Source of the DNA: Pegea sp. RAD2-039
Lineage: Eukaryota > Chordata > Thaliacea > Salpida > Salpidae
Direction: 5' to 3'
Length of the DNA: 64,000 nucleotides
Assembly: GCA_034620365.1 (NCBI GenBank)
Contig: JAQGEQ010000237.1
Location: forward strand, 82,001 to 146,000
Positions 3,715-60,886 of this stretch are shown one piece after another. Made by a program: the position numbers and the translations under genes. The notes under the pieces were generated by a model that searched no databases, was not told the DNA's origin, and worked only from the letters and a program-made list of their open reading frames with translations. Every line of letters begins with the position of its first letter. Position 1 is the first letter of the stretch.

Positions 3715-6269
3715 ATGTCCACTCCATTATATTTCTTCTTATTTCTTTTCTGTTTTGTCAATTCTACTCTATCGGAGAAGTTAGTAAAAATTTGAATATT
3801 TAGATATTTTGGTTGAAATATATAGAGAAACATCTGTAAATAGTAAATTCTTGAGTAATAAAATAACTTAAATAATTTTGAATATAATTTTAAATGAATG
3901 TTAAAATGTAGTTTTGTAATAAGTACTTAATATATAACGATGTTTGTAATACTACAAAATGTTAATAAAGTTGAATTGTCACAATATTTTGTTTAAATTG
4001 AAGATACAGTCAAAGCAAATTACTTAAAAAATTTGCAAATTTAAACTATTTAAATAAAAGAAAAAAGATATGAATTGATTATTGCAAACTAAGTAATTGC
4101 TTAAAGATATTATAACTTTGTAATTTTACGTTTTAACACTTTGTTTAAAGTGAAAAGCTTATAAACTTATTATTATAAATTATCTCTTAAACATGACAAT
4201 TTATTTTAGGGTTATGAGAGATTTAATAAATTATAAAGTTATGTAATTATGAGTTTAGTTGTTAAAATCAGAAAATATTTTGTGCTGCTATAAACTTAAC
4301 TAACTTTTCTAAAGTCACAAATAAAGTTATAGCAAGCTAAGTATATGTATTAGTATTATTCTTATTTTCATTTCAAATATTGTAAGTAGAATTTTACAAT
4401 TAAGTTTATTTTACAGCACTCATATAACAGATGAAGAAAGAAAAAATTATGAAGAATTTGAAATCAACTTTCAATTTTATTTACTGGTACATTCAATAAA
4501 CTTAAATTTTTAACATATTTGAAATAAAATTGAAGCACAAATTTAAAGCTAAATTTTGTTAAAAGTTTAAGCTAGATCTAAATTGTTTTCAAACCTAGTA
4601 ATGTAACCATGTTTTTATTTAAAATATTTAATCATTGCTCAAACAAAAATTTCATAAATTACAACTTCAAAAACGAATTTTATTTGAACTCAGAATTTAA
4701 TTTGTTGCTTATTTAATCTGTTCAGCTACAAGTTTTAATTTATAATATTTATTTAACAATTAACTCTGAGAATATCAATTTGTTAAAACATTTGTAAGTT
4801 GTACCTAATTTTATATGGTTATCTGTAGTGGAATTTCAATGATGAAAGCATTTTCTGTTTTTAATTTTTTTCAATTTTATTAACAGGATTTCATTGAGAA
4901 AATGGACACATGCAAAAAATATTCAAAAGGAAGAAACTTTTATGACATTATTACTGATAAGTGTAAGACATGTGAAAATAGCCCTTCCTACTTTTATTGT
5001 CAAGGTATTTAAGCTTCTTTAACTTTGAATAACTTCTAAAATATATTTCATTGACAAATAATTAAAAAATGTTTAAGTTGTTTTGACATTTAGTTAACTA
5101 AGATTAACAATCGACAAGAAGCTTAAGTTAATAATTTTTTTATTTTTTCCAATAAATCATTTTAGTTATTAATTTTAAAAACAATAATTTTTATTGTTTT
5201 CAAATCTTAGATCAAATACTTGAGTTGGATTATTCTCAAGTAAGTTAGTTTAATAAACAATTAATTTACTCTATTTGCATTATATCAGAATCGAACCTTA
5301 TATTTAACTCTTTTTTGAAGTGTTAAATACGTCGTTTTTAATTACTTCTGTAAAATTTACTTACGAGTATAGAGCATTATTGAGATTCCTTCACATTGGT
5401 GAAGAACTGATTAAACAATTTAATAAACTAAATTGCTTTTGTTTAATATTTTTGCCTTAGACAAATTAACGAAGCAACACACGTATTCAGCAATAAAAAT
5501 ATTTTGTATTTCAGAAAGATCAGACTCTTTTCAGAGGATTTCTTATCTATATTTACGTGCTAACTAGTCTTGTCATAGCATTTTATATACATGGTTATTC
5601 GGTTTGGATAAGTAATCAGCATAAGTAAAAATCTTTTTATAGATTGCTTCGACTTTTCATCTACTAATTTCTATTATGAACTAAATATTATTATAAATTA
5701 TTCACAAAAACTACTTTAGTTATTTCATAAGCTAATAGTAAAAGCTAAAAGCTAACAAACCTAAAATAAAACATAGAAACTTTTGAATTTAAATGATGAT
5801 TTAGACTTTTGATAATACTCCAAGTTAGATAATTAAAATCCTAATGTTGTTCAGTTTATATCAAAATAAAAAATGCAAAAATTTTCGTGCAGTTTCAAGA
5901 AAGCTCATGAAGAGGTTGATAAATTAAAAAAATTGTTGGAAGAAACCAATCAGCAATTAAGTACTTCAAACTTCGAAACTGAAAGTAGTTTTTATGTCAT
6001 TTATTTCTATTTATTTCTATTTATAATTATTTATAAATTTTTTTATCTTAATTTAGTTAAACGTTAAGCAAAAAAAAATATTTAGAATTTGGGAGACAAA
6101 CTAAAAAAAATCATTTCTTATTTATTCACTCAATTTTTTTTAACATTCATTTCCAATAACTCAGCAATTCAAGATGTATTTTTATCGTTTCAGATTCAGA
6201 AACTACTTAATTAGGATTGAAGATAGTCCAATGAAAAAGCACAGATCTTTCGATGACTTGTTGATTTAA
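3715..6269 (+). CDS. 4C-CC-TM family protein, type A (seven exons, two possible C-termini)
   Basis: I do not recognise this gene; the model is assembled from splice sites. Exons: 3715-3779, 4417-4486, 4887-5004, 5211-5239, 5515-5624, 5893-5984 and 6194-6210 (stop), giving 166 aa with the frame kept across every junction. It has a signal peptide (residues 1-20, very hydrophobic), an acidic linker, a four-cysteine module (C54, C71, C74, C83, with FYDIITDKC), a 10-residue helix exon, a TM helix at about 101-122, then a Lys/Glu-rich, coiled-coil-like cytoplasmic segment (KKAHEEVDKLKKLLEE). Skipping exon 6 joins exon 5 to exon 7 in another open frame ending FDDLLI at 6269. A poly(A) signal AATAAA lies at 6332. 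The first three introns have phases 2, 0 and 1, as in the B and C paralogues. It is likely a type I surface protein; its function is unknown. Confidence 0.72.
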
Positions 6270-8632
6270 TTAATTTATAAGCTGTTTGCAATTATCCAAA
6301 TATCCTCATTTATATTTCTTGTAATAATAATAATAAAATATATTACGAAATTAGATGCAAAGTATAAAACTAATTGAAATATATAATATGAAAATAATTT
6401 GAAGATTTCTTTTAGCTGTGTTTGTAACAGATGATGATTTTTAATATAATCTTGTACAAGGGTGATTTCAAAAAAAAATCTAAATAATTGTTGTTACTTT
6501 ATAACTTATTTTCAACATTTGTAAGATAAGTAAAAATTTAAAAAAATTATCAGATTAAAAAAGTTTATTTTACAAATACTATTCTTACAATAAAATATAG
6601 ATTTTAACAATATTAAAAATTTTATACATTGAATGTTGCTAATAAGCTCTCAATACTTTCGTCACTGAGTTAATGTTTATCTGTATAAAAAACTTTCTTG
6701 ACTTTATATAAGACTAAGAAATTGTTACATATCAAGATAAAAAAAATTAAGTAACAACTAACATTAATAGAAATAAGTTTTTAGATAGTTTCACTTTTTA
6801 ACGTAAAATATTAAGAACTTTTATTTTCTAAAGATTTTAATTATCAATCTTTTTTTTTCTAAATCGACATATTGCGCTAAAAAATATTTTTGTTTCACAA
6901 AGCCATAGTGTCAACTATTTTGTACTAATTGAATATGTTTGCAGCTTAAAGTTTTCAAATAAAATTCAGAATAAAACCACCATTAAGAAGCTAATAAAAG
7001 CTTGCTTTTATCTAGAATGAATTGAAGAAGTTTCGATATGTAGAAAGCAAAAACTTTATTCTAAAAGATATTTGATTGAGGTTTGTTTAAAGGATTTTGT
7101 AATTAATTTTTATATTAAGTAAAGATGTTTTACTTTTGTTGAATGATTAAGAGAATTTATATTGAAGATTTTTCAATCTTATCACTGTTTGTATGAGTTC
7201 TTTGATCTAAGTCTTCATTCAGAGCAGTTAGTTTGACATTTTTTATGAAAATATTCAACTTGATGCGTTTGTGTTTAATTAACTCAAAACAAACATTTAA
7301 TTTAATTTGTAAATAGTTTTATTTTATATGTGATTTCAAAGTTACATATAATTACTTTAAAGATTTGTTCTTGCTAAGATTACATCATTTTGGAAATACA
7401 AAAGAAAAAGAAACCGAATTCTGTTTTATCTTTTTTAACAGATAATAGTTAGCAATCTACTAAATACAGATTATATTAATAAAAACAGAAACTTTTTTAT
7501 TACTTTGATTTGTTGAATTTCTGTGACAATGAAAAATATAGAAAAATAAAATAAAAGAATTTTATTAATTTAAAGGTTTCATCGATTCTAGTTTAATTTA
7601 CGTTTTACAAGTTGTGAATTGATGCATTCTTATTTCATCTGTTGATTTAAGATAATTTTGTGTTGCTATATCAATAAATGTCTCCTTGACAAATATTTGA
7701 TCTCATGATAGGCTTTGCATATATCAATAAACTCGAAACTCAAATAACACTCCTCAACCTCAAGTGATTACCTTATACAAATTAATAATTGTTTGAAATC
7801 TAAAATAAATAACTAATTTAATAAAATAAGTAATTACATAAATTAGGAAATAATAATACTTTAATATGTTCTATAGAATAACTTAGTTAACAAAACGTTA
7901 AAATAATTTTTTTGTTTCAAAAAAAAATTTAAAAGGGATATATTTTTGGAATTGCGTTTATTAGAAGATGCTATGTTTCTTAATTTTGTGATTCATAATT
8001 GTTTCTACCAATTTAATATATTTATCAAAGAATCACTTACATTTCATTACCATGTACAGTTACCGTTAAGTGTACCAAACAAACATATTTTGAAAAATAT
8101 ACTTTAAAGCTTATAGTTACAACACTAATATTTTGATTATCTTTCTCATTTATGGGAGTTTTAAAATCTCATTTTATCATAAATTTTTCAAATATTGTTC
8201 TATTGTAAAAATTAGCCTCAAAAACAACTCTGTATAAAATAAAACCTAGCAAAATTTTTAGTTTTATATTTTCAATGCTTATAAGTAATAGCGAAAAAAT
8301 AAAAATTATTCATACTTGAAATTACGTGTAACCTAAGCAGAAAAATAACTAAGTTCAAATAGACATTGTAATAACTAAAACTGTCTAACTTTTGTAAGTT
8401 TACTAACAAAGATTTATTTTTATCTTTTAAGTCTTTTAAATATTCCAGGTGATTAAAGTTTACTAGAAGCATTTTATTTAAGTAAATAGCAGTTAGTAAA
8501 AAAGTATTTAAAAGTTAAGCTATGAAATAGATTGACAAACACAATTCGATTTCATCATTATATGAAACTAACTTTTTATAAAAAATAGAATCGAAAACAA
8601 CAAAAGAAGCTTATAAATTTTATACAAATTAT
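6270..8632. other. Gene-free AT-rich spacer with array relics
   Basis: Nothing is coding here with confidence. A minus-strand LRR remnant at about 7195-7260 reads KLTALNED. Positions 7560-8250 resemble about 40.39-40.75 kb and 55.0-55.2 kb. Positions 8250-8630 belong to the repeated module also seen near 39.65 and 52.12 kb. The rest is AT-rich and featureless to me. Confidence 0.5.
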
Positions 8633-10534: not shown

Positions 10535-10618
10535 GTAAGTCTAAGTTGAAATCTTAGCTTTGATTATAAATTTATTTTAGAAATAAATCATTTAATTTTT
10601 TGTTTAATGTTTTCACAG
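10535..10618 (+). other. Predicted 5' UTR intron of the LRR gene
   Basis: A donor (aagt|gtaagt) at 10535 and an acceptor (ttttcacag) ending at 10618 flank 84 bp just before the ATG of the LRR gene. The same pair occurs at 37825-37916 and 50299-50390. This implies that the mRNA starts at the TATA box upstream and includes the leader relic. Confidence 0.6.
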
Positions 10619-10622
10619 AAAA

Positions 10623-11726
10623 ATGACTTTGACTAAAGTTTTTTGTTTATGCTTGATGATAATATCAAATAGTTTTTGTGAAGAGGATTCTGAACTATCA
10701 AGTTGTTATGCAAATCCGAAAATCGTTTTATGTGTTGATGTTACATTAACTAGATTCCCACTTTATACAAAGAATTTACTTGTAACTTCAATGATTCTCT
10801 CCAACAACAGTTTGTTTGAACTTGATATTGATACCAACTATAATAAATTGAATTTGTTAAAGATTACCAACAACAATTTCAAAAATATTGAATTTATAAA
10901 TTTTGATTTAGAAAATCTAACTAAGCTGATATTAGATGACAACAAGATTAAATCGATCAATACGACAAGTAAAAATCTTCCGAAAAATCTTCAACAATTT
11001 TCAGCAAGAAACAACAAACTTACCGCTCTGAATGAAGACTCAGATTTTTCAGACTTTCAACAACTAAAGAAGATTGATTTATCAGGAAATTTGATTACTA
11101 AATTTTCGTTGTGTTCTTTTCCTATAAGCATTGAAAGCTTGGATTTGTCTAATAATTCAATAAGATTTTTATCATTAAAAAAATATAAGAATCGTTTATT
11201 TTCTGATTATACAAACCTTTCATATCTCTTCTTGCAAAATAACAAAATTAAAACCTTTTATTTTCATCCATTGATACCTACAACAAATCATTTCAACAAA
11301 AACTTTTTAAAAACGGAACTATTTCGAAATGAATTTAATTGTTCGACAAATTTTACAAGGTTTTACACGAATATATTAAAAATAAGAAATGTAGAAATTA
11401 AATGTGAACATAGTTGTTGTAAAAGTAATACCTGCTTGATTTGTATCATTAGTGGTTGTTTTGCTTTTAGACTGTTTATATTTATTGCTTACATTGTTCT
11501 TGTAAAGTATGTCAAAGATGAACCAGATGAAGATGAACCAGATGAAGATGAACCAGATGAAGATGAACCAGATGAAGATGAACCGATTTATAGTTTTGCA
11601 GTTGATCCTATTGATGTCAGAAATTATTCTCATCAACAGATTGATTCTTCATCATTTTCTGGAAATCGTGTGAACTCTTCTTATGAGAAAACGGAAAACG
11701 AACCTGTATATTCTGTAATTGATTGA
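10623..11726 (+). CDS. LRR transmembrane receptor with acidic, tyrosine-containing tail
   Basis: Single-exon gene of 367 aa; the start lies four bases after the 3' splice site. Signal peptide about 1-19, N-terminal cysteine cap (C28, C37), then about seven irregular LRRs from residue 54 to 225 (motifs LxxLxLxxNxL such as LTKLILDDNKI and IESLDLSNNSI). A C-terminal cysteine-rich cap spans 240-271 (C240, C261, C265, C266, C271), and the TM segment about 272-296. The tail starts with 4.6 tandem DEPDE repeats (299-321) and carries four tyrosines (Y323, Y335, Y354, Y363), including VYSVI near the end, a YxxI motif. Residues 1-155 match the 37921 and 50395 proteins closely; the rest is unrelated to them at the same level. 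It is likely a surface recognition receptor with signalling capacity. Ligand unknown. Confidence 0.85.
   Translation: MTLTKVFCLCLMIISNSFCEEDSELSSCYANPKIVLCVDVTLTRFPLYTKNLLVTSMILSNNSLFELDIDTNYNKLNLLKITNNNFKNIEFINFDLENLTKLILDDNKIKSINTTSKNLPKNLQQFSARNNKLTALNEDSDFSDFQQLKKIDLSGNLITKFSLCSFPISIESLDLSNNSIRFLSLKKYKNRLFSDYTNLSYLFLQNNKIKTFYFHPLIPTTNHFNKNFLKTELFRNEFNCSTNFTRFYTNILKIRNVEIKCEHSCCKSNTCLICIISGCFAFRLFIFIAYIVLVKYVKDEPDEDEPDEDEPDEDEPDEDEPIYSFAVDPIDVRNYSHQQIDSSSFSGNRVNSSYEKTENEPVYSVID
11517..11585 (+). repeat. In-frame 15-bp minisatellite encoding DEPDE repeats
   Basis: A 15-bp unit (gatgaaccagatgaa) is repeated 4.6 times with virtually no differences, inside the receptor tail. The perfection implies recent expansion and probable length variation between individuals. 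The reverse-strand frame reading FIWFI repeats is only its shadow. Confidence 0.9.
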
Positions 11727-13095: not shown

Positions 13096-13502
13096 AAAAC
13101 GTTTTTCAGAGAGTCTTTTTTGTAACAAAACTGTTGTTTATGTTTGGATATAAGTTAATAGAGGTGTAATCAAAAGTTAACAATTATAGAAGAAATATTA
13201 AAATGTATTGTTGATTGAACTACTTGAACTTTGTTGTTATAAAGTTTATAAACAAAAATAATTCTAAAATAATAGATAACTTTGAGGGATGAAAATTTAA
13301 ATTTTGTAAAGAGTTTGTTTAAATGTAAAAGATGTTTTGTTTTCATTTAAAGAATTCGAATAAAAGAAATAAGTTAGATTTATAATATCTTCATAATAAA
13401 CGTCAAGTTTTGTTTATAAAGACAATTATCGTTTTTCGATTATTTTAATTAAGTTGGTTAAAAATATTAAAATTATCAATAAAATCAAAATTAAAGAATT
13501 GT
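13096..13502. other. Spacer
   Basis: AT-rich sequence between the LINE relic and the tRNA cluster; nothing recognised. Confidence 0.4.
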
Positions 13503-15760: not shown

Positions 15761-15761
15761 T

Positions 15762-24662: not shown

Positions 24663-25169
24663 TGAAAAGATTGATAAAAAAGAAAGTATCCTTAGAATAT
24701 TAGTTTTGTTTAACTTTCAATTAAAAAAATAATGTTTTAAAATCACCGTTTTACATCTAATAAACACAATTTTTAATTGACTAAAAAGCTTTGTATTAGT
24801 TCGTCTCAAAAAAAGACCTTTAAAACTTCTTACTGTATTTTGAACACTTTCTAAGATAATAGAATTGCAATTCAAGAATAAATTTCAAACACGAAAAACT
24901 TTTTTTAATAATATCAAATTAAAAAAGATGCCATCAACATAATTTTTTTTTTTAAATAAAAGTTTAAGTAGGTCAATTCTATAAACCGAAAAATAAGGAA
25001 AAGAAAGTATATTTTTGGAACGTGTTGTCAAAATGTCACGTTTTGTGTTCCTTATTCTCATACTGAAAAAATAAAGTTTGCAACACAAAGTAGAAAAACA
25101 AAACTTCTCACAAAATACCAGAAGCTAAGAACAGAGTTGGATATCTTTCAGAAAAAGCTAAAGTTTAAA
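24663..25169. other. 5' region of the LRR gene at 25170
   Basis: A 3' splice site (gttggatatctttcag, ending 25149) lies just upstream of the start codon, so a 5' UTR exon probably lies further upstream. I see no TATA box like that of the C-type units. Confidence 0.4.
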
Positions 25170-26165
25170 ATGAAACTTGTAATTTTGATTTTGATTTTAA
25201 TATGCATAAGACTTATAAAAAGTGAAGAGTGTTCAAGACCTTCTGGTTGTGAGTGTCTAGTTAGTTATGTTTCTTGTACTAATATAACATTGACTCGACT
25301 TCCTTTCATTCGTAAAAGTGCTCGTGTAACATCTCTTGTTTTGTCGAATAACAGTTTAAGCAGTATAAATATCAACCAACAATATAATCAACTACAACAT
25401 CTGAAATTTACCAACAACTGGCTTTCAATGGTTCAATTTTCACGTTTGGATTCAGAAAATCTAATTAAGCTGATATTAGATGACAACAAGATTGAATCAA
25501 TCAATACAACAAGTAAAAATCTTCCGAAGAATCTTCAATTATTTTCAGCAAGGAACAACAAACTTACTGCTCTGAATGAAGACTCAGATTTTTCAGACTT
25601 TCAACAACTAAAGAAAATTGATTTATCAGGAAATTTGTTGAAAAATATTTCTTTATTTTCGTTTCCTACTTGTATTGAGATTTTAGATTTGTCTAATAAT
25701 GAAATTGAAACATTTTTTTCAGGAAATAATTCCTTACAACACTTTGCAGTTTTGAAAACTCTGTTGTTGAACAATAACCATTTAAAAATAATTCATCAAC
25801 TTCCACCAAATCTAAAAAGACTTGATCTTTTCAACAACAAAATAGTGAATATTGATTTATTGATGTTTCTTATGAATTCTGTAATAACTTTAGATATTCG
25901 AAAAAACAATTTAAACTGTACAAAAAAGTTTATTGATGACTATAAAAGAGTAACATCTAACAAACAAGTTTTGTTTATTTGTGATATTGGTTGCTATACT
26001 TGTAAATCTTATACAATAACAACTAATAAAACTGATGACTTTACCACAAAAGGTATCCCCCAACAATACTTTGAATCAGTTTTTATCACAAGTTTTCTTG
26101 TACAATTTTTGTCTATTATTTTGTATGTATTTATCAGTTTGATTGTTTATTGTTTAAATGAATAG
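25170..26165 (+). CDS. LRR surface protein with minimal cytoplasmic tail (B-block type)
   Basis: 331 aa counted from the ATG at 25170. The in-frame codons upstream (MDIFQ...) lie across a splice acceptor and are not likely to be translated. Signal peptide about 1-18 (MKLVILILILICIRLIKS), cysteine cap (C21, C27, C29, C36), about eight LRRs, a C-terminal cap (NLNCTKKF ... CDIGCYTCKS), a Thr-rich stalk and a C-terminal hydrophobic segment of about 24 residues ending in CLNE. The first 80 residues diverge strongly from the 37921 and 50395 proteins, but from LILDDNKIESI onward it is nearly identical to them. The anchor could be a TM helix or a GPI signal. The paired neighbour is the 4C-B gene downstream on the other strand. 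Confidence 0.86.
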   Translation: MKLVILILILICIRLIKSEECSRPSGCECLVSYVSCTNITLTRLPFIRKSARVTSLVLSNNSLSSININQQYNQLQHLKFTNNWLSMVQFSRLDSENLIKLILDDNKIESINTTSKNLPKNLQLFSARNNKLTALNEDSDFSDFQQLKKIDLSGNLLKNISLFSFPTCIEILDLSNNEIETFFSGNNSLQHFAVLKTLLLNNNHLKIIHQLPPNLKRLDLFNNKIVNIDLLMFLMNSVITLDIRKNNLNCTKKFIDDYKRVTSNKQVLFICDIGCYTCKSYTITTNKTDDFTTKGIPQQYFESVFITSFLVQFLSIILYVFISLIVYCLNE

Positions 26166-27660: not shown

Positions 27661-29321
27661 TTAAAATCTACCTCTTTGTTGATAATTGTAAATGTCATCT
27701 TCCTTAGATGAGTATTTTGATGACTTTTGTAATTGTTCAGTTTGATAACTGAGAGAATCCTTTGAGCTTGAGTCATCTGTATTTTCTTTGTAGCATGTTG
27801 ATGTTATTTGATTTATCATTTTCATTTCTGTCAATATGTTGAGGTTGTAGATAAACAGTTTTATTTTAAAGTTAATTTTGATCGTTTTTATAGCAAGTTT
27901 GTTTATATGATCATTTGTATCTTTAATAAAAACTAAATCTTAATTAACCCTTATAAAAGATAATATTAAAAACTATTTTAGTTCAACAAAATTATAAATT
28001 TATTTGGTTTATATTGAGAAATCTATATTTAGTTTTTATGAAATGCTTCAATATCATATACTTTATTTGGCGTGTTTTAAAAAATCTATAATTAAATTTT
28101 TATAAAATCTTGTCAATTACCAATATTTTTTAATCTTACTTTTATCGAGAATGAATCCAATTCCAGTAACAACGATCAAAGACATCGAAATCAAGATTAC
28201 CATAGAAATTAAAAGAGTCTTTAAAAAATAATTCCCATCAAAGCATTTATGAAAAATTTTGTTAAAATTTTATAAAAAATTTTATAAATATTTCTAAATC
28301 TCTTTAAATTAATAATTCGAGTAAAAAAAAATTGCTATAATCAATTTACTATAAACTTCTTTGTTTAAAATCAAATAAAAGTAATCAGCTAAAATACAAA
28401 ACAAATTTTAATGAATTAAACCATTATATAATTAAATAAATTTAAATTTCAAGGTTTTATTATTTAATATTCTTTAAATAAAATCATTAATGATTATTTT
28501 GGTAATCTACTTTAAGTTACTTTACCTTATATTTATTTAAAAGATTTTCATTTTCATGAGTAACTCTTTCGTTTAATTCATAGTTATGTTTTCTAATAAT
28601 CCAACGTATTTGTTCCAATTCAATTTTAATATTATTGATTTGATCTTGTACTAGAAAAATTAATAAAAAATATTATCAAGCTATCAAAAAAATTCATCAA
28701 ATTTTAGATTTAATGTTTAAATATTGTATTTTTTAGTATTTACCTGTACAGAAAGTGTAAGAAACAACTTTGTTTTCTTCACAAGATAAACATTGATCAG
28801 TTGCCATGTCATAAAATTGTGTCATAGATGATGCAGTTTTACATTCCAAATCCTTTTCTAGAGAGCTCTTTTATAAAAAAGATAATTTTTAATGATTCAT
28901 ACTATTTTCATCTTAAATCAAAAACATAAAACTTTGTTCTCAGCTGAACTAGATTGAAATCATTCACTTTTTTTGTGTAAACTATTTATAATATATATCA
29001 TAAACTTATTAAACTATTCAAAGTAATATTTTTTGTGAATATTTTTCAGTTTTAAAGTAAATTTCTTTATTGAACTGAAACTATTTAATATTAAATCTAC
29101 TTACAAAGTAGGCATAGTTGTAAAACTTCTTGAATTTTTCAATTTCTTTTCTTTCAATTTCTTTCAATTCTTCTTCAGTAGGTTCAGTAAGTCTATGAAG
29201 GAGAATATTTAATTTAATTATTGTCTAAAAATAAGAAAGTATCTTTTACTCACGGTCCAACATCAGCTAAAACACAAGTTGAAATGATTGACAAAAGAAC
29301 TCCAAGTAAAAAAACTTTCAT
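27661..29321 (-). CDS. 4C-CC-TM family protein, type B (intact copy, six exons)
   Basis: Exons on the minus strand: 29254-29321, 29105-29192, 28744-28867, 28526-28650, 28140-28218 and 27661-27827, giving 216 aa with the frame kept throughout. Signal peptide 1-19 (MKVFLLGVLLSIISTCVLA), Glu/Lys-rich helix 24-52, four-cysteine module (C61, C78, C81, C92; FYDMATDQC), coiled-coil exon 94-135 (leucine/isoleucine heptads, many Glu and Lys), TM helix about 136-160, and a 55-residue Ser/Gln/Tyr-rich tail (Y at IYNYQQRGRF). It is likely a type I membrane protein able to dimerise through the coiled coil. Family unknown to me. Splice sites are all GT-AG with phases 2,0,1,0,1. It is convergent with the LRR gene at 25170. 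Confidence 0.8.
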
Positions 29322-34654: not shown

Positions 34655-35252
34655 AAGTACTTATTATTTATTGGTGTAAAATCGAAACAAAGTACAGATT
34701 ATCTTTAAGACTTTTTAGTTATTTCAATAAAAAGCTGCAAAAGTTTGTTTAATGTAATTACCTAAAATTATTCAAGACCTAATTTCAGTTTTAATATTAA
34801 AAACTAAACTAAAAAATCTTTTCATTTTAGTCTATATATGAATTTGTAACTTTTAACTTGTTTTCAGTTCAAAAATCAAATTTCAAAAGAAATTGGAGAA
34901 AAATATCGCTGAAGAAGTTATGAAATATCTAAAGATGAAACAACGTTTACAGCATGAAAATGTATTTTTCAAGAGTTATTACCTATAATTATTGAAACTT
35001 TTAATTTTGAATAAGTTAATTTAGTAATTGAAGTTAGGTTGATTAATTTTACTTAAAAATTTACTTAACAATACTAAAGAAAAAAGAATTTACTTGATTT
35101 TTATTTTTAATTTAAAATATAAACTTTCTTTACTTATTAAGTTTATTTAATTACAAATTTTTCACTAAAATCTCATATTAAATTTTATTGTTTTTCATTC
35201 TTAGAAAATTGATAAGCGGATACAAGAACAAAAGGATTCGATCTTATCTTAA
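34655..35252 (+). pseudogene. Orphan 3' end of a 4C-C gene (TM remnant and two tail exons)
   Basis: A piece of TM exon (LIIYWCKIET, to about 34693, followed by a gtacag donor) is followed by a tail exon 34868-34961 (phase 2 in, phase 0 out; KFQKKLEKNIAEEVMKYLKM) and a last exon 35205-35252 (KIDKRIQEQKDSILS, stop). A poly(A) signal lies at 35304. The frames join cleanly, which supports the tail structure of the family. The upstream exons are missing, because the B blocks and tRNA region lie between this end and the matching front end at 8-11.7 kb. Confidence 0.55.
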
Positions 35253-35573
35253 TTAGATGAATGATTTATTTGCAAAAATGTGTTAATATTAAGGTTGTAT
35301 TGAAATAAATGATCAGAATGTTTACCTTAGAAGTAGTTATATAACTTTAGTTATAATAATAACTAAAATAGTTTAAGAAATTACTTATAACTAATCATTT
35401 TAATTAAAAACATTTTTAGTTTTTGCAACAGAGTTTGTTATAAGAACTTACATTCATAAAAATAACTTTCAAACATCACTTGAAACTACCTTAAGACAAA
35501 CTTTAAGACAGAAAACATAGAATCTATTGTTATTCTTATCAATTGTTTGACTAAAGTTCATATTTTTTTAGTG

Positions 35574-35706
35574 CTACCAACTATAATACTTTAGAGGTTT
35601 TAAGCTTTGAGAGTTTTGTTTTTTAAATAATTTTTGAATTTTATTATACCAAAAAAATATAATAGAAATCAAAACTACATCATAAATAATCATTAATTTA
35701 GAATAT
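35574..35706 (-). other. Possible minus-strand terminal exon with hydrophobic segment (unit 2)
   Basis: After an acceptor (ggtttgattttcag) a phase-2 frame encodes 43 residues with a hydrophobic run (MIIYDVVLISIIFFW) and a basic tail ending LKYYSW, stop at 35574. Equivalents lie at about 48054-48185 (frame broken) and 61440-61586 (open, diverged). It may be the last exon of the minus-strand LRR genes, but I cannot find a donor in the required phase. Confidence 0.3.
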
Positions 35707-35929
35707 CTGAAAATCAAACCTTCATTAATTAGCTTTTGGTAGATATAAATTACAGAAGATAAACAAATGAGAAGAAACAATATGTGATTATAACTTATAG
35801 GTTTTATTTAACAAAATATTACAATATTCAAAATCAAACATATAAAACTACAAAAACCAACTAACAGATTAATTAAGATAATTTAATACAAAAAGGAAAC
35901 GAAAATAAAAAATATTTTTAACAATTTTC

Positions 35930-37735: not shown

Positions 37736-37920
37736 TACAACAAGTAGGTAGGTTCTTAGAAATTCAAAATATTTTTAGCAACAAGCTCGACTTATTTTTA
37801 GAATTCACAGGAAAGTTTTAAATTGTAAGTTTAAGATGAAATATTAGCTTTGATTGTAAAACAGTAAATTGGTTTTAGAAATAAATCATTTAAATTTTCG
37901 TTTAATGTTTTCACAGAAAA

Positions 37921-38922
37921 ATGACTTTGACTAAAGTTTTTTGTTTATTCTTGATGATAATATCAAATAGTTTTTGTGAAGAGGATTCTGAACTATCAAG
38001 TTGTTATATAATTCCAAAAGTCATTTCATGTGTTAATGTTATATTAACAAAATTCCCACTTTATACGAAGAGTTTACATGTATCTTCAGTAATTCTTTCC
38101 AACAACAGTTTGTTTGAACTTGATATTGATACCAACTATAATAAATTGAATTTGCTAAAGATTACCAACAACAATTTCAAAAATATTGAATTTATAAACT
38201 TTGATTTAGAAAATCTAGCTAAGCTGATATTAGATGACAACAAGATTGAATCAATAAATACAACAAGTAAAAATCTTCCGAAAAATCTTCAACAATTTTC
38301 GGCATGGAACAACAAACTTACTGCTCTTAATGAAGACTCAGATTTTTCAGACTTTCAACAACTAAAGATAATTGATTCATCAGGAAATTTGTTGAAAAAT
38401 ATTTCTTTGTTTTCGTTTCCTACTTGTATTGAGATTTTAGATTTGTCTAATAATGAAATTGAAACATTTTTTTCAGGAAATAATTCCTTACAACACTTTT
38501 CAGTTTTGAAAACTCTGATGTTGAACAATAATCATTTAAAAATTATTCATCAACTTCCACCAAATCTAAAAAGACTTGATCTTTTCAGCAACAAAATAGT
38601 GAATATTGATTTATTGATGTTTGTTATGAATTCTGTAATAACTTTAGATATTCGAAAAAACAATTTAAACTGTACAAAAAAGTTTATTGATGACTATAAA
38701 AGAGTAACATCTAACAAACAAGTTTTGTTTATTTGTGATATTGGTTGCTATACTTGTAAATCCTATTTTATAACCACTAATAATAACACTGATGACCTTA
38801 CCACAAAAGATATCCCTCAACAATACTTTGAATTAGTTTTTATCACAAGTTTTCTTGTACAATTCTTGTTTATTATTTTGTTTGTAATTATAAGTTTGAT
38901 TGTTTATTGTTTAAATGAATAG
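37921..38922 (+). CDS. LRR surface protein with minimal tail (unit 2)
   Basis: 333 aa, single coding exon; the ATG follows a 3' splice site (ttttcacag) by four bases, as in units 1 and 3. Signal peptide about 1-19, cysteine cap (C28, C37), about eight LRRs from residue 54 to 250, C-terminal cap (NLNCTKK, CDIGCYTCKS), Thr/Asn-rich stalk with potential N-glycosylation sites, hydrophobic anchor about 306-329 and a four-residue end (CLNE). A poly(A) signal (AATAAA) is at 38944. It differs from the unit 3 protein at 11 residues. One leucine position of an LRR is Ser (IIDSSGN), which may weaken that repeat. Confidence 0.9.
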   Translation: MTLTKVFCLFLMIISNSFCEEDSELSSCYIIPKVISCVNVILTKFPLYTKSLHVSSVILSNNSLFELDIDTNYNKLNLLKITNNNFKNIEFINFDLENLAKLILDDNKIESINTTSKNLPKNLQQFSAWNNKLTALNEDSDFSDFQQLKIIDSSGNLLKNISLFSFPTCIEILDLSNNEIETFFSGNNSLQHFSVLKTLMLNNNHLKIIHQLPPNLKRLDLFSNKIVNIDLLMFVMNSVITLDIRKNNLNCTKKFIDDYKRVTSNKQVLFICDIGCYTCKSYFITTNNNTDDLTTKDIPQQYFELVFITSFLVQFLFIILFVIISLIVYCLNE

Positions 38923-43185: not shown

Positions 43186-46100
43186 ATGAAATTGACATTT
43201 TTTTGGATTTTGTTGTTTTTTTCTTCGAATGAAGCTTCTAGGTTTGTTATTTTGAAAATACTAAAAAAAGTTCTTCATATATTAGATCTTAAAAAATATT
43301 TTTAAGGCGAATAATTCAATATCGTAAATTTTTAGACTTATTTGTTTTGTTTATGATCTTACAAAGAATTTGGTTATTTTTATACTTAAAACTCAATGAA
43401 ATTATGTCAGTTGTCTTATTATAATTAAGGAGAGTTTTTAATAAAATCATATGTAATTGATACTCAAAGTTATCTCAAGAAAAAGATGTTGTAACTAAAT
43501 AGCAAAACTTCTACAATCATTATACTCTCAACAAACTATTTTACTATAAGTAATCTAAAAAATAAAGAAGTGAAATTAATATCATCAATATAAAACCAAC
43601 TTACCAAATAAGACTAAAAATGTCTAAGTGAAAAACTTAATTTTAAAATTCTGATAAAGTACAAGAAAATTTCAAGATGACCCAATAGAAGAATTATCTG
43701 ATGAAGCTATAAATGAAGTTGAAGAATTCAAAATTCAATTTGAGTTTCGTTTTTTGGTGAGTACTTATATCATAGCTTGAATAAATCTTATAATTACTAT
43801 TCTTATCAATATATAAATCATTTTTATTTTCTAATTTCTATGCTTCTGTTAAATTAATGATATTTATTATTTAATTATTTAAATTTTATTTATTACTATT
43901 GTTTTAATCAAAAACGTAATACACTCACGCGTCAACTCAACTGTTAATGTAATTATTTAAAGATTAAAAATGAAAGATATACATTCGAGGTATTATAAAA
44001 TAAAAATAAATTTTAGAAGAAAGAGTAAATTAAGCTTAAGAGAATTTTATCTTTTAAACAATATTTAGAAACAACAAAGTTCCAAAATTGTTGTAAAATT
44101 TTCGATTAAACACTTTTCAAATTATCTTTAAAAAAATTAAGGATTTCGCTGAAAAAAATGACCGATGCCAAAAAGTTTCCAAAGGAAAGAAGTTTTTTGA
44201 TATTTCTACTGATACTTGTAAATTATGTGATGTAAATGAAAATGAATTCAATTTCTTTTGCCAAGGTTCGTTTGCTTATTGAAAAACTTCTCTCATATGT
44301 TATACAATAATTTGATTTTAAGTTATTTTTATGCTATACCGATTTTGATGTTAGTTTCAATAGTTGAAGGTTTTAGAAAACAAGTTTGATTTAAGTATAG
44401 AAGTCTATTAATATTAGTCAATTATATATATAACATACTTGACATGTCTTTTAAATTTAAAGTATCTTATCAATTTGTTTTTTGTCACAACAGATAATCG
44501 TCTACAAGTGAAAATACTATCGAATGTAAGTTAGATTCAAATAATGATCAAAATAAATTCCATTAAGTTCTACTAATCAATTAGCATTCAATTACTTATT
44601 TAATAACATTTTATAGGTATTAAAGTTCATGAACATTCATTAAATATCAATTTACTTTATAAGAAGATCCAAATGAAATCCATAAACTTCCTTTGTTTTC
44701 GATAATATTTCAATTCTATGTAATAGTTTACTGATGTATGTTTTGAGGACAACTGAAATGCCATGTGTTACATCTTTTGATTTCTATATTTCTAACTTAA
44801 TAGATGTTATTTGTGAGAATGTGTATTAGCGAGAGGTGCTCTCTTCAGAAACCCTCCTTTGTATTTAAATATTATTTTGTCATAAATAAATAAATGAATG
44901 AATAAAATAATTTATTTTTAAATGATTTTTGATTTGTTTTTACAGAAATTACTGCAATTACAAAAAGAAAATAAAGTTTTTTCTAAAAGTAAGTTAGACA
45001 TTTCATAAAAGAGATTTAATTTTAAGATTTAAAGTACGATGTATTTTTGTCACTAATTTATTATGTTTATCTAATCAAAGAATTTTATGTTTTGCTTTTT
45101 GTCACAACAGATAATCGTCTACAATTGGAGATACTTTCTGATGTAAGTAAGATTAAAAGAATAATCAAAATAATTTCAAAAGTACCTAAATCTTGAATAT
45201 TAATAGCTTGAATGCCATTACTTATTTAAAAACCTTTTATAGGTATTAAAGTTCATGAACATTTATTAAATATCAATGTACTTTATAAGAAGATCCAAAT
45301 GAAATTCATAAAATAATTTACTTTGTATTGACTTTTGATTTGTTTGTTACAGAAATTACAGCAATTAGAAAAAGAAAATAAAGATTTTTCTAAAAGTATG
45401 TTAGAACTTTAATAAAAGAGATTTATTTTTAACATTTAAAGTAAAATGTATTTTCGTAAATAATTTACATTTTTCAAGTTTTATTAACTTAATTTTTTAT
45501 TATGCATTCTTAAAATTGAAAATATTTTTTTGTACATTTTTATAAACAACAAAATTTTGTAGATCAGCAGTTACTTCAAACTTCAATTTCAACCAATCAA
45601 GAAATGATTACAGTCAAAATTGAAGAAGATTTTAAGGTTTTTGATACATCTATGATTTACAAACTAAAAGAACAAAACTATTTGAAAAAAAAATCATAAA
45701 TTTATAAAATCAAATAAAAACAACTTTTAAATATTGAAAACTGGTTTTTCATCTACTTCTTTTAAACTGAAGATAAAAATTTGATAGAATATTTTTTCGA
45801 TGTGAAAAGCATGCTGGAGCAAAATTTTTTATTAATGACAAATATTTTTATTCAGTTTTGTATAATTTCAGGGACATCAGAAGTTGTTTATTGTAATATT
45901 TGTAATAATTTTCATCATGATTTCAATAATGACTTTTATTTTGAGCAAAATCGTAACAAGGTACAGATTATCTTTAATACTAATTTAGTTATTTCACTAA
46001 GAGGCTGCAAAAATTTGTTTAATGTAACTACCTTAATTTATTCAAGACCTAATTTCAGTTTTAATAATAGATACTGAATTAGAAAATCTTTTCATTTTTG

Positions 46101-46197
46101 GTCCATATATGTATTTTTAACTTTTTGACTTGTTTTCAGTTTAAAAGAGTTGAAAAATCAAAACTCAATCATCAAAAAAAAGTTTAGGAAAAAATAA
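43186..46197 (+). CDS. 4C-CC-TM family protein, type C, unit 2 (ten exons)
   Basis: Exons: 43186-43241, 43666-43756, 44142-44265, 44494-44525, 44946-44988, 45111-45142, 45353-45395, 45563-45636, 45872-45960 and 46140-46197, giving 213 aa. Signal peptide 1-18, acidic helix (DDPIEELSDEAINEVEEFK), four-cysteine module (C58, C75, C78, C89; FFDISTDTC), then coiled-coil exons (NRLQ, KLLQLQKENK, NRLQLEIL, KLQQLEKENK) to about residue 165, TM exon 166-195 (LFIVIFVIIFIMISIM) and a short basic tail. If the exon 8 donor (aag|gtttttg) is ignored, translation ends at 45699 with a poly(A) signal at 45713, giving a secreted 185-aa form. Exons 4-5 and 6-7 with their introns are tandem duplicates. Function unknown. 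Confidence 0.78.
44690..44915 (+). mobile_element. LINE 3' UTR inserted in intron 4 of the 4C-C gene
   Basis: About 215 bp matching only the 3' UTR of the LINE family ('gttacatcttttgatttctatatttctaactta', 'tgtgagaatgtgt') and ending in a (TAAA/TGAA)n tail. It is absent from the duplicated equivalent intron downstream of exon 6 but present at the same spot in unit 3, so it is older than the unit duplication and younger than the exon duplication. Confidence 0.85.
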
Positions 46198-47336: not shown

Positions 47337-47895
47337 AGCATGAAAATGTATTCTCAAAAAATATAAATCATGAAATAATTAAAGTGAAGGATGAAAAAGA
47401 TTTTAAGGTTTTTGATACATCTGTGATTTACAAACTGAAATAACAAAATTATTTGTACAAAACATAATAACTTTCAAAACTTTTCTAAAATCAAATAAAA
47501 ACAACTTTTCAATCCTGAAAAAACTGGTTTTTCGTCTATTTCGTTAAAACTAAAGATATAAATTTGATAGAATATTTCTTTTATTTGAAAAGCATGCTAC
47601 AGCAAAATTTATTTATTCAGTTTTGTATCATTTCAGAAACATCAAATTTTTGTAATAACTTTCATCATAATTTTGATGATAAATACTATTTACATGTGCC
47701 ACATCAAAATAAGATTATCTTTTAGACTTTGTAGATAATTAACTAAAAGGCTGCAAAAATTTATTTAGTACTATTACCTAGAATTATTCAAGACCTAATT
47801 TCAGTTTTAATATTAAAAACTAAATTAAAAAATCTTTTCATTTTGCTCTATTTATGAATTTGTAACTTTTAAACTTATTTTCAGTTTAAATAGTT
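47337..47895 (+). pseudogene. Relic 4C-C exons 8 and 9 (partial tandem copy)
   Basis: A copy of exon 8 with its readthrough end (DEKDFKVFDTSVIYKLK, stop) lies at about 47370-47439. A TM exon follows at 47637 (KHQIFVITFIIILMINTIY; the donor is lost), then the start of a tail exon near 47883 that breaks off at the unit boundary. Confidence 0.55.
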
Positions 47896-48358
47896 TGAAA
47901 ATTCAAAATCACAGAGTTTGCTATATGACCTTGCTTCCATAAAAAGAACTTTCAAACATCACTTGAAACTACCTTAAAACAAACTTGAAGACAGAAACCA
48001 AGAATCTATTGTTATTCTTATCAATTGTTTTACTAAAGTTCATTTTTTTTGGTGCTACCAAACATAATATTTTGGAGGTTTTAAGCTTTTCGAATTTTGT
48101 TTTTTAAATAATTTTTGTATTTTATTACACCAGAAAATGTGAAAAAAAAAAAACTACATCATAAATAATCATTAATTTAAAATATCTGAAAATCAAATCT
48201 TCATTAATATAAAGCTTTTGGTAGATATAAGTTAGAAAAGATAATCAAATGAAAAGAAACAACAATATGTGATTATAACTCATAAGTTTTATTTTAGCAT
48301 TATATTACAATATTCAAAATCAAAAACATAAAACCACAAAAACCAACTAACAGATTAA

Positions 48359-50210: not shown

Positions 50211-50394
50211 ACAACAAGTAGGTAGGTTCTTAGAAATTCAAAATATTTTTAGCAACAAGCTCGACTTATTTTTAGAATTCACAGGAAAGTTTTAAATTGT
50301 AAGTTTAAGATGAAATATTAGCTTTGATTGTAAAACAGTAAATTGGTTTTAGAAATAAATCATTTAATTTTTTGTTTAATGTTTTCACAGAAAA

Positions 50395-51396
50395 ATGACT
50401 TTGACTAAAGTTTTTTGTTTATGCTTGATGATAATATCAAATAGTTTTTGTGAAGAGGATTCTGAACTATCAAGTTGTTATATAATTCCAAAAGTCATTT
50501 CATGTGTTAATGTTACATTAACAAAATTCCCACTTTATACGAAGAGTTTACATGTATCTTCAGTAATTCTTTCCAACAACAGTTTGTTTGAACTTCATAT
50601 TGATACCAACTATAATAAATTGAATTTGCTAAAGATTACCAACAACAATTTCAAAAATATTGAATTTATAAATTTTGATTTAGAAAATCTAGCTAAGCTG
50701 ATATTAGATGACAACAAGATTGAATCAATCAATACAACAAGTAAAAATCTTCCGAAAAATCTTCAACAATTTTCGGCATGGAACAACAAACTTACTGCTC
50801 TGAATGAAGACTCAGATTTTTCAGACTTTCAACAACTAAAGATAATTGATTTATCAGGAAATTTTTTGAAAAATATTTCTTTATTTGCGTTTCCTACTTG
50901 TATTGAGATTTTAGATTTGTCTAATAATGAAATTGAAACATTTTTTTCAGGAAATAATTCCTTACAACACTTTGCAGTTTTGAAAACTCTGTTGTTGAAC
51001 AATAATCATTTAAAAATTTTTCATCAACTTCCACCAAATCTAAAAAGACTTGATCTTTTCAACAACAAAATAGTGAATATTGATTTATTGATGTTTGTTA
51101 TGAATTCTGTAATAACTTTAGATATTCGAAAAAATAATTTAAACTGTACAAAAAAGTTTATTGATGACTATAAAAGAGTAACATCTAACAAACAAGTTTT
51201 GTTTATTTGTGATATTGGTTGCTATACTTGTAAATCCTATTTTATAACCACTAATAATAACACTGATGACCTTACCACAAAAGGTATCCCTCAACAATAC
51301 TTTGAATTAGTTTTTATCACAAGTTTTCTTGTACAATTCTTGTTTATTATTTTGTTTGTAATTATAAGTTTGATTGTTTATTGTTTAAATGAATAG
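50395..51396 (+). CDS. LRR surface protein with minimal tail (unit 3)
   Basis: 333 aa, the same architecture as the unit 2 protein: signal peptide 1-19, cysteine cap, about eight LRRs, C-terminal cysteine cap, stalk, hydrophobic anchor about 306-329, end CLNE. Comparison with unit 2 gives 16 base differences in 1002, of which 11 change an amino acid (for example D68H, and changes in the LRRs at LSGNF, LFAF, KIFHQ). The ATG follows the acceptor of the 5' UTR intron. A poly(A) signal follows the stop by about 20 bases. It is either a TM protein with almost no cytoplasmic part or GPI-anchored. Confidence 0.9.
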   Translation: MTLTKVFCLCLMIISNSFCEEDSELSSCYIIPKVISCVNVTLTKFPLYTKSLHVSSVILSNNSLFELHIDTNYNKLNLLKITNNNFKNIEFINFDLENLAKLILDDNKIESINTTSKNLPKNLQQFSAWNNKLTALNEDSDFSDFQQLKIIDLSGNFLKNISLFAFPTCIEILDLSNNEIETFFSGNNSLQHFAVLKTLLLNNNHLKIFHQLPPNLKRLDLFNNKIVNIDLLMFVMNSVITLDIRKNNLNCTKKFIDDYKRVTSNKQVLFICDIGCYTCKSYFITTNNNTDDLTTKGIPQQYFELVFITSFLVQFLFIILFVIISLIVYCLNE

Positions 51397-57818: not shown

Positions 57819-60800
57819 ATGAAATTGACATTTTTTTGGATTTTGTTGTTTTTTTCTTCGAATGAAGCTTCTAGGTTTGTTATTTTGAAAATACTAAAAA
57901 AAGTTCTTCATATATTTGATCTTACAAAATATTTTTAAGGCCAACAATTCAATGTCGTAAATTTTTAGACTTATTTGTTTTGTTTATGATTTTATACAGA
58001 ATTTAGGTTATTTTTATACTTAAAACTCAATGAAATTATGTCAGTTGTCTTATTATAATTAAGAAGAGTTTTTAATAAAATCATATGTAATTGATACTCA
58101 AAGTTATCTCAAGAAAAAGATGTTGTAACTAAATAGCAAAACTTCTACAATCATTATATTTTCAACAAACTATTTTACTATAAGTAATCTAAAAAATAAA
58201 GAAGTGAAATTAATATCATCAATATAAAACCAACTTACCAAATAAGACTAAAAAAGTCTAAGTGAAGAACTTAATTTTAAAATTCTGATAAAGTACAAGA
58301 AAATTTCAAGATGACCCAATAGAAGAATTATCTGATGAAGCTATAAATGAAGTTGAAGAATTCAAAATTCAATTTGAGTTTCGTTTTTTGGTGAGTACTT
58401 ATATCATAGCTTGAATAAATCTTATAATTACTATTCTTATCAATATATAAATCATTTTTATTTTCTAATTTCTATGCTTCTGTTAAATTAATGATATTTA
58501 TTATTTAATTATTTAAATTTTATTTATTACTATTGTTTTAATCAAAAACGTAATACACTCACGCGTCAACTCAACTGTTAATGTAATTATTTAAAGATTA
58601 AAAATGAAAGATATACATTCGAGGTATTATAAAATAAAAATAAATTTTAGAAGAAAGAGTAAATTAAGCTTAAGAGAATTTTATCTTTTAAACAATATTT
58701 AGAAACAAAAAAGTTCCAAAAATTTTGTAAAATTTTAGATTAAACACTTTTCAAATTATCTTTAAAAAAATTAAGGATTTCGCTGAAAAAAATGACCGAT
58801 GCCAAAAAGTTTCCAAAGGAAAGAAGTTTTTTGATATTTCTACTGATACTTGTGAATTATGTGATGTAAATGAAAATGAATTCAATTTCTTTTGCCAAGG
58901 TTCGTTTGCTTATTGAAAAACTTCTCTCATATGTTATACAATAATTTGGTTTTAAGTAATTTTTATGCTATACTGATTTTGATGTTAGTTTCAATAGTTG
59001 AAGGTTTTAGAAAACAAGTTTGATTTAAATATAGAAGTCTATTAATATAGGTCAATTAGAAATATAACATACTTGACATGTCTCTTAAATTTAAAGTATC
59101 TTATCAATTTGTTTTTTGTCACAACAGATAATCGTCTACAAGTGAAAATACTATCGAATGTAAGTTAGATTCAAATAATGATCAAAATAAATTCCATTAA
59201 GTTCTACTAATCAATTAGCATTCAATTACTTATTTAATAACATTTTATAGGTATTAAAGTTCATGAAAATTCATTAAATATCAATTTACTTTATAAGAAG
59301 ATCCAAATGAAATCCATAAACTTCCTTTGTTTTCGATAATATTTTAATTCGATGTAATAGTTTACTGATGTATGTTTTGAGGACAACTGAAATGTCACGT
59401 GTTACATCTTTTGATTTCTATATTTTTAACTTAATAGATGTTATTTGTGAGAATGTGTGTTAGCGAGAGGTGCTTTCTTCAGAAACCCTCCTTTGTATTT
59501 AAATATTATTTTGTCATAAATAAATAAATGAATGAATAAAATAATTTATTTTTAAATGATTTTTGATTTGTTTTTACAGAAATTACTGCAATTACAAAAA
59601 GAAAATAAAGATTTTTCTAAAAGTAAGTTAGACATTTCATAGGAGAGATTTATTTTTAAGATTTAAAGTAAAATGTATTTTTGTCACTAATTTATTATGT
59701 TTATCTAATCAAAGAATCTTTTGTTTTGCTTTTTGTCATAACAGATAATCGTTTACAATTGGAGATACTTTCTGATGTAAGTAAGATTAAATTAATAATC
59801 AAAATAAATTCAAAAGTACCTAAATCTTGAATATTAATAGCTTGAATGCCATTACTTATTTAAAAACATTTTATAGGTATTAAAGTTCATGAACATTTAT
59901 TAAATACCAATGTACTTTATAAGAAGATCCAAATGAAATTCATAAAATAATTTACTTTTTATTGACTTTTGATTTGTTTGTTACAGAAATTACAGCAATT
60001 AGAAAAAGAAAATAAAGATTTTTCTAAAAGTAAGTTAGAACTTTAATAAAAGAGATTTATTTTTAAGATTTAAAGTAAAATGTATTTTCGTAAATAATTT
60101 ACATTTTTCAAGTTTTATTAACTTAATTTTTTATTATGCATTCTTAAAATTGAAAATATGCTTTTTGTGAATATTTTTACGAGCAATAGAATTTTGTAGA
60201 TCAGCAGTTACTTCAAACTTCAATTTCAACCAATCAAGAAATGATTACAGACAAAATTGAAAAAGATTTTAAGGTTTTTGATACATCTATGATTTACAAA
60301 CTAAAAGAACAAAACTATTTGAAAAAAAAATCATAAATTTATAAAATCAAATAAAAACAACTTTTAAATATTGAAAACTGGTTTTTCATCTACTTCTTAT
60401 AAACTGAAGATAAAAATTTGATAGAATATTTTTTCGATGTGAAAAGCATGCTGGAGCAAAATTTCTTATTAATGACAAATATTTTTATTCAGTTTTGTAT
60501 AATTTCAGGGACATCAGACGTTTGTTATTATAATATTTGTAGTAACTTTCATCACAGTTTTGATAATAATTATTCTTTGCTGGTGCAAAATCAAAGCAAG
60601 GTACAGATTATCTTTAAGACTTTTTTAGTTATTTCACTAAGAGGCTGCAAAAATTTGTTTAATGTTATGACGTAAAAATATTCAAAGCCTAATTTCAGTT
60701 TTAATATTAGATACTAAATTAAAAAAAATTTTTTCATTTTTTGGTCTATATATGATTTGTAACTTTTAACTTGTTTTCAGTTTAAAAGAGTTGAAATATC

Positions 60801-60886
60801 AAATTTCAAAACAATCCATGGGGAAAACTATCCCTGAAAAAGTTGTTCTCCAAATATCTAAAGATGAAGCAATGTTTAAAACATGA
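57819..60886 (+). CDS. 4C-CC-TM family protein, type C, unit 3 (ten exons)
   Basis: Exons: 57819-57874, 58300-58390, 58776-58899, 59128-59159, 59580-59622, 59745-59776, 59987-60029, 60200-60273, 60509-60600 and 60781-60886, giving 230 aa. Signal peptide, acidic helix, four-cysteine module (FFDISTDTCELC) and duplicated coiled-coil exon pairs as in unit 2. The TM exon is markedly more hydrophobic in its second half (FVVTFITVLIIIILCW). The tail of 35 residues (KELKYQISKQSMGKTIPEKV ...) is longer than in unit 2 because the stop codons there are absent. A secreted form ending at 60336, with AATAAA at 60350, is possible if the exon 8 donor is not used. Type I membrane protein; function unknown. Confidence 0.8.
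59330..59545 (+). mobile_element. LINE 3' UTR in intron 4 of the 4C-C gene (unit 3)
   Basis: Same insertion as at 44690 in unit 2, with a few substitutions. It was carried along by the unit duplication. Confidence 0.85.

What the first reader, a model, noticed from the sequence alone, without database searches (positions are those of the whole stretch)
3715..60886. An unrecognised four-cysteine / coiled-coil / transmembrane gene family, hidden in tiny exons
Five gene copies (3715, 18188, 27661, 43186, 57819) plus orphan exons share a signal peptide, an acidic helix, C-x16-C-x2-C-x8/10-C with F-[FY]-D-[IM]-x-T-D-x-C, helical exons, a TM exon and a tail. The first three introns have the same phases (2,0,1) in types A, B and C, although the sequences are very diverged. 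Four copies are open from start to stop when spliced; the fifth has one nonsense codon. ORF finding misses them completely. I know no family with this layout.
Basis: partly seen in the sequence, partly recalled or inferred. Interest (0 to 1): 0.88.

Follow-up and report, generated by a model that had tools for sequence, protein, structure and literature searches.

The report
Clustered four-cysteine membrane receptor-like genes
What looks like an animal genome carries one cluster of at least sixteen small membrane-protein genes, cut into tiny exons and mixed with leucine-rich-repeat genes, that match no described protein family tested and seem to evolve by swapping their outer heads and membrane/tail ends, as recognition receptors often do.

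Summary
All five window copies splice as described: four open from start to stop, one with a stop in exon 2 (last junction of A). Three Cys-exon queries, one per type, each hit only one contig pair of the 105.7 Mb genome; together they define at least 16 loci. Cross-type spliced alignment scores 89-171 against at most 44 in 69 controls. Introns 1-4 share phases 2,0,1,0 in all types. Between types the Cys exon has changed less at replacement than at synonymous sites; within types pN/pS is 0.74-1.07 for head exons, so constraint looks weak or change fast.

No significant match in Pfam, NCBIfam, PDB or a protein collection; animal proteomes were not available.

New here: the genes are interleaved with 19 open LRR membrane genes. 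Gene A is recombinant, head from one subtype and TM/tail from another, joined in an intron. LRR genes are mosaics too. Subtypes A2 and B and one LRR subtype have tyrosine-bearing tails. I read this as a lineage-specific recognition-receptor cluster; that function is inferred.

The parts
3715..3779 (+). A exon 1, signal peptide MSTPLYFFLFLFCFVNSTLSEN
4417..4486 (+). A exon 2, acidic helix
4887..5004 (+). A exon 3, four-cysteine module
5211..5239 (+). A exon 4 (29 nt), DQILELDYSQ
5515..5624 (+). A exon 5, transmembrane segment
5893..5984 (+). A exon 6, amphipathic helix after the TM
6194..6210 (+). A exon 7 with stop
5455..5489 (+). recombination junction of gene A: 3403-5455 resembles A2 loci, 5489-6355 resembles L017
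18188..19770 (-). B1 gene, 6 exons (19703-19770, 19566-19641, 19205-19328, 18990-19114, 18604-18682, 18188-18447), TAA in exon 2
27661..29321 (-). B2 gene, 6 exons (29254-29321, 29105-29192, 28744-28867, 28526-28650, 28140-28218, 27661-27920), open
   Evidence: start of last exon ambiguous
43186..46197 (+). C1 gene, 10 exons (43186-43241, 43666-43756, 44142-44265, 44494-44525, 44946-44988, 45111-45142, 45353-45395, 45563-45636, 45872-45960, 46140-46197), open
57819..60886 (+). C2 gene, 10 exons (57819-57874, 58300-58390, 58776-58899, 59128-59159, 59580-59622, 59745-59776, 59987-60029, 60200-60273, 60509-60600, 60781-60886), open
47366..47908 (+). orphan 3' end of a C-type gene at a duplication edge
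34658..35857 (+). orphan 3' end of a C-type gene at a duplication edge
10608..11726 (+). LRR membrane gene, type L1 (tyrosine tail EPIYSFAVD...NEPVYSVID), ORF from stop to stop
24972..26165 (+). LRR membrane gene, type L2 C-half, no cytoplasmic tail, convergent with B2
37906..38922 (+). LRR membrane gene, type L2, upstream of C1
50380..51396 (+). LRR membrane gene, type L2, upstream of C2

Best explanation
Shown: a family of at least 16 loci, sharing exon phases and a four-cysteine exon, found only in one LRR-rich cluster. Inferred: they are small type I membrane proteins. A signal peptide is removed, an acidic helix and a disulfide-closed four-cysteine loop form the outer head, a helical stalk (B, C and the retrieved subtype A2) brings chains together, one TM helix anchors it, and a variable tail follows. 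Head and TM/tail lie on exons joined by introns of fixed phase, so recombination in introns makes new head-tail combinations; gene A is one such product. The co-amplified LRR genes diversify in the same way. The likeliest use is surface recognition (immune or self/non-self), with the heads or the LRR partners as binding units and tyrosine-bearing tails (A2, B, LRR type L1) as signalling units.
For: The same loci are reached by all three types of query (14, 16 and 16 hits). Cross-type spliced alignment above 69 controls. pS exceeds pN between types in 3 of 3 exon-3 comparisons (0.46/0.28, 0.74/0.42, 0.91/0.42; only 19-22 synonymous sites each) and 3 of 3 exon-2 comparisons. In 7 B copies exons 3 and 4 vary less than introns (9/124 and 10/125 variable columns against 123/831; p 0.025 and 0.038, uncorrected, gapped columns dropped) and exon 2 varies more (18/76, p 0.047). 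LRR neighbours are under purifying selection: pooled pN/pS 0.39 (L1, 6 copies), 0.51 (L2, 4), 0.56 (L3, 2). One hydrophobic TM stretch after the head in the five models tested. A complete A2 gene of 275 aa at C284:65k with a tyrosine-rich tail ending FDEYSVL. Mosaic gene A and mosaic LRR genes.
Against: No transcripts or proteins seen. Within types pN/pS is 0.91 (7 B), 0.97-1.07 (A/A2), 0.74 (3 C, exons 1-3), 0.87 (C1/C2, exons 1-8) and 2.89 for two A2 TM-and-tail parts (1 synonymous, 13 replacement changes): this could be relaxed constraint. Of the 16 loci 5 are broken or have lost part of the module (B1, A2 at 38k, 48k and 75k, and C284:26.7k), 4 are unresolved and 7 are open. The Cys exon alone was predicted with low confidence (mean pLDDT 61). 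A, C1 and C2 have short tails with no clear signalling motif. No physical link between LRR and four-Cys proteins is shown; in a cluster this dense, proximity is expected.
Confidence: 0.5

Rival explanations
1. Reproductive (gamete or mating recognition) surface proteins rather than immune receptors: fast change and tandem clusters are typical there too.
For: Near-neutral pN/pS within types and tandem birth-and-death.
Against: Head/tail exchange with tyrosine-rich tails points more to signalling receptors; nothing on expression.
Confidence: 0.2
2. A decaying orphan family: once functional, now drifting copies carried along by duplication of the LRR genes.
For: pN/pS near 1 within types; 5 of 16 loci broken or degraded.
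Against: 7 of 16 loci open through 6-10 exons in my models; exons 3 and 4 below intron variation in B. C1 and C2 exons 1-8 differ by 5 changes in 495 counted sites, but introns 1-8 are also 93-99% identical, so this pair may simply be young.
Confidence: 0.2
3. A degenerate single cysteine-rich domain of the TNF-receptor type (BCMA/TACI/Grindelwald-like), i.e. a derived TNF receptor.
For: Pfam BCMA-Tall_bind is the only family seen with the exon-3 set (1 of 9 members, E 0.15); F-[FY]-D-x5-C-x2-C has the spacing of the BCMA/TACI core (recalled).
Against: E-value not significant; 4 cysteines instead of 6-8; PDB sequence searches list no TNF receptor at E<=10; the same short motif aligns with meckelin and a Kunitz domain.
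Confidence: 0.1

Closest known systems
BCMA/TACI/Grindelwald single-CRD TNF receptors (Pfam PF09257 for BCMA)
   Same: Small type I membrane protein with one short Cys module outside; F-[FY]-D-x5-C-x2-C spacing (the receptor spacing is recalled).
   Different: 4 Cys instead of 6-8 (6 recalled); not significant in Pfam (E 0.15); preceded by an acidic helix. PMC8024323 (passages read) gives 8 cysteines in four disulfides for Grindelwald.
Meckelin cysteine-rich N-terminus (PDB 7fh1)
   Same: YFDISALSCVPC resembles C-type FFDISTDTCKLC (alignment of the profile).
   Different: E 7.9 with the profile; E 0.26 with C1, where the best stretch was another region; meckelin is a chain of 1021 residues in PDB.
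Clustered invertebrate recognition loci (Hydractinia allorecognition complex, Botryllus fuhc)
   Same: Fast-evolving or highly polymorphic membrane genes in one interval (partly recalled; search listing and start of abstracts seen).
   Different: Those of Hydractinia are Ig-like (recalled); no Ig-like domain in the 5 proteins scanned here: the parts are an LRR ectodomain and a four-Cys head.
Mosaic immune gene families (sea urchin SpTransformer/185-333, lamprey VLR; recalled)
   Same: Diversity by element or module exchange.
   Different: No sequence relation tested; here exchange is seen between germline copies, with head and TM/tail as modules.

Membership tests
TNF receptor superfamily, BCMA-type | Pfam model above its curated cut-off | tested here: not met
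   1 of 9 exon-3 members at E 0.15; no TNF-receptor model at E<=1 for full-length A, B2, C1
TNF receptor superfamily, BCMA-type | two-module CRD with three or more disulfides | tested here: not met
   only four Cys in the outer head after the signal peptide in A, B2, C1, C2
TNF receptor superfamily, BCMA-type | binds a TNF-family ligand | not testable with these tools
   needs protein binding
Meckelin-type Cys repeat | significant profile match | tested here: not met
   E 7.9 (profile), 0.26 (C1 alone) against PDB
Kunitz inhibitor | six Cys and significant match | tested here: not met
   TFPI-2 E 1.8, four Cys only; no Pfam Kunitz hit
Type I membrane protein | N-terminal signal sequence | tested here: inconclusive
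   hydrophobic N-terminus passes Kyte-Doolittle 1.6 in 2 of 5 models (A2, B2); in A, C1, C2 it rests on reading the sequence; no signal-peptide program was run
Type I membrane protein | one TM helix after the ectodomain | tested here: met
   one hydrophobic stretch in 5 of 5 models (C2 as two overlapping segments)
Allorecognition or immune receptor locus | population polymorphism and recognition phenotype | not testable with these tools
   one assembly only

The most novel reading that the evidence does not exclude
A two-part recognition locus unknown until now: LRR membrane proteins and four-cysteine stalk proteins are made and diversified together in one cluster, work as partners (ligand-binding and signalling chains, with tail-less LRR types depending on tyrosine-bearing four-Cys chains), and gain new specificities by head/tail exchange at phase-matched introns.
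Probability: 0.2. Interest if true: 0.82.

Novelty: new variant of a known kind. Interest (0 to 1): 0.55.

Why it matters
If expressed, it adds an undescribed ectodomain and a head/tail-swapping gene cluster to the short list of diversifying recognition systems in invertebrates, and shows how ORF-based annotation can miss a whole family whose exons are mostly under 130 nt. The phase-matched introns and the recombinant gene A make the exchange mechanism directly testable with more individuals.

Tried and rejected
Protein collection with C1 and with the four-type alignment A2: 0 hits at E<=10; with the LRR neighbour 0 hits at E<=0.001, so this collection tells little about this genome. Pfam hits of full-length models are below cut-offs and fall on helical or TM stretches (best Rab11-FIP3 E 0.001 with 19.8 of 31.9 bits for C1); NCBIfam hits are below E 0.001 in none (best E 0.0065). 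PDB searches with single Cys exons gave a hypothetical protein, rubredoxins and meckelin (C1, E 0.21-0.58), SWT1 (A, E 1.4) and nothing (B); with the profile MED15 1.2, TFPI-2 1.8, meckelin 7.9.

Organism: the COX1 search found nothing; a bdelloid spliced leader, recalled, has no exact match; an 18S/5.8S/28S fragment exists (L042). I did not place it; 'animal' is my reading. A paper search for the assembly was no use.

AlphaFold: C1 exon 3 alone gave pLDDT 61, too low for a fold search, which I did not run. The 5-row alignment A3 could not be submitted.

Faster evolution of the TM exon: strong in A against L017 (31 of 110 differ, flanking introns 16 of 293; p 3.5e-9), but not general: not in B (E5 against pooled introns p 0.87) nor clearly in A2 (5/80 against 15/208 upstream and 6/496 downstream, 3 of 4 copies). 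In C1/C2 (77.5%) it coincides with a likely breakpoint. I do not build on it. The high variation of the B tail (91 of 142) I put down to L026, whose tail reads as unrelated; I did not recount without it.

Rows left out before counts: exon-3 alignment A1 holds 9 of 16 loci (near-duplicates dropped); A exons 1-3 used 3 of 6 A-type loci and exons 2-3 used 5 of 6; B counts leave out the tail exon; one search used one copy per type (A, B2, C1). In one search, 9 loci were first aligned on the wrong strand (scores -8 to 41) and redone.

Papers: passages of PMC8024323 read; search listings only (1 unrelated paper; 0 papers).
Full report
What is there. The window is G000:C284:82001-146000 of a 105.7 Mb, 387-contig genome, 20-25% GC outside three richer stretches of 31-34%. 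It is a eukaryote by its rRNA; I take it for an animal from reading that fragment (recall, not tested). I spliced all five copies by hand. A encodes 166 aa (last junction as, after two other choices failed), B2 247, C1 213 and C2 230; B1 has a TAA in exon 2. The layout is hydrophobic N-terminus, acidic segment, four-cysteine exon, then helical exons and one TM segment. In A the TM precedes the long helix.

Is it more than chance. AT-rich DNA can yield false spliced frames, so I used controls. Heads of A, B and C, aligned with a spliced-alignment script to the loci of the other two types, scored 89-171 in 6 of 6; 23 control stretches per query (10 stretches of the window without a whole four-Cys gene on both strands, and 3 reverse strands of the loci) reached at most 37-44. 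Exon 3 came back exactly in 4 of 6 and the 3' end of exon 2 in 5 of 6; exon 1 was found only by B on C, where exon 2 started 6 nt early, in phases 2,0,1. So exon 1 homology between types rests mainly on position and phase. Exon 3 aligns between types with z 8.8-13.3 and 32-54% identity, and synonymous sites are more changed than replacement sites in 3 of 3 comparisons; exon 2 is weaker (z 2.3-4.9). Seven of the 41 columns of the exon are invariant over 9 members that include the degraded one, 11 among the five window copies. A short DNA pattern at the start of exon 3 is shared by A, C1 and C2 (3 matches, 0.08 expected; the pattern was written from these copies).

How many, where. Three queries over the whole genome at E<=10 found 14, 16 and 16 places. 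The union is 16 loci, 13 on C284 and 3 on C283, none elsewhere; the tool calls such counts lower bounds. They are 1 A, 4 A2 (same head as A, other stalk, TM and tail), 1 degraded A-like (C284:26.7k, third and fourth Cys lost), 7 B, 3 C. Seven are open from start to stop in my models: A, A2 at 65k, B2, B at C283:118k and C284:11k, C1, C2. Five are broken or degraded: B1 (stop); A2 at 75k (stop in the tail); A2 at 38k (exon 1 missing); A2 at 48k (frame lost in exon 1; its tail was not recovered); C284:26.7k. Four are unresolved: B at C283:151k, C284:155k and C284:176k; C3 on C283. Whether C283 continues C284 or is another haplotype I cannot tell.

Neighbours. Single-exon LRR membrane genes fill the same cluster: 44 hits to one LRR query, of which 19 on C284/C283 align over 245 aa or more without stops; weak hits lie on C257, C94, C113 and C15. 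Each of the 16 four-Cys loci has one of these 19 within 8 kb, but at this density that is expected. The four A2 genes each have an LRR hit 3.8-4.7 kb upstream in the same orientation; I read two of those four in full (type L3). The window units repeat as 17690-24288/27162-33806 and 35428-46302/47911-60931, the last interrupted by the retroelement at 52418-54557; the edges of the C unit explain the orphan exons.

How it changes. Gene A is recombinant: 3403-5455 matches A2 loci at 89-90%, 5489-6355 matches the C284:26.7k locus at 87-89%, and neither match continues through the junction, which lies in the intron before the TM exon (fetched loci only). LRR genes show the same habit: w10623 and w50380 share the N half (85-100% in 120-nt windows) and then fall to about 50%; w24972 shares its C half with w50380 (796 nt, 93.6%) and w37906 (756 nt, 94.4%), while its N half is at about 50% to w10623; a short core is near 90% in the 4 pairs compared. 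LRR type L1 tails carry EPIYSFAVD and NEPVYSVID in 6 of 6 copies read; L2 and L3, by reading, stop just after the TM. The A2 tail carries HPIYSYN and ends DEYSVL in the two copies read through. Calling these signalling motifs is inference.

Selection. Within types, pooled pN/pS is 0.91 for 7 B copies (exons 1-5), 0.97 for exons 2-3 of 5 A/A2 copies, 1.07 for exons 1-3 of 3, 0.74 for exons 1-3 of 3 C, 0.87 for C1/C2 exons 1-8, and 2.89 for two A2 TM-and-tail parts (1 and 13 changes); LRR L1 0.39 (6 copies), L2 0.51 (4), L3 0.56 (2). In B, exons 3 and 4 are less variable than introns and exon 2 more (p values 0.02-0.05, uncorrected, copies not independent). This fits a conserved Cys core with fast-changing surroundings, but weak constraint overall is not excluded.

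What it is. Nothing described matches significantly. The only leads are short resemblances around F-[FY]-D-x5-C-x2-C to BCMA (E 0.15), a Kunitz domain (E 1.8) and meckelin (E 7.9); I do not file it in any of them. I commit to a clustered surface-recognition family, possibly partnered with the LRR proteins. Family, exon layout, cluster and mosaicism are shown; membrane topology, stalk oligomers, disulfides, signalling and function are inferred.

Noticed in passing
window 10608-11726, 24972-26165, 37906-38922, 50380-51396; L049-L055: The LRR genes are mosaics: N halves and C halves (with or without a tyrosine tail) are combined differently around a core of about 90% identity.
   Followed up: partly
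window 52417-54396 (+), 16394-17739 (-), 24375-24698: Non-LTR retrotransposon copies; the 659-aa frame is one of at least 150 reverse-transcriptase hits in the genome.
   Followed up: no
window 13859-13940, 14363-14434, 13502-13616: Three tRNA matches within 1 kb, one of them weaker and found by Rfam only.
   Followed up: no
L042: A partial 18S-5.8S-28S stretch lies beside a long simple repeat on contig C1; only the 3' part of 18S seems to be there.
   Followed up: partly
window 11520-11585: In-frame repeat of EPDED units in the acidic tail of the L1 LRR gene; its number differs between copies.
   Followed up: no
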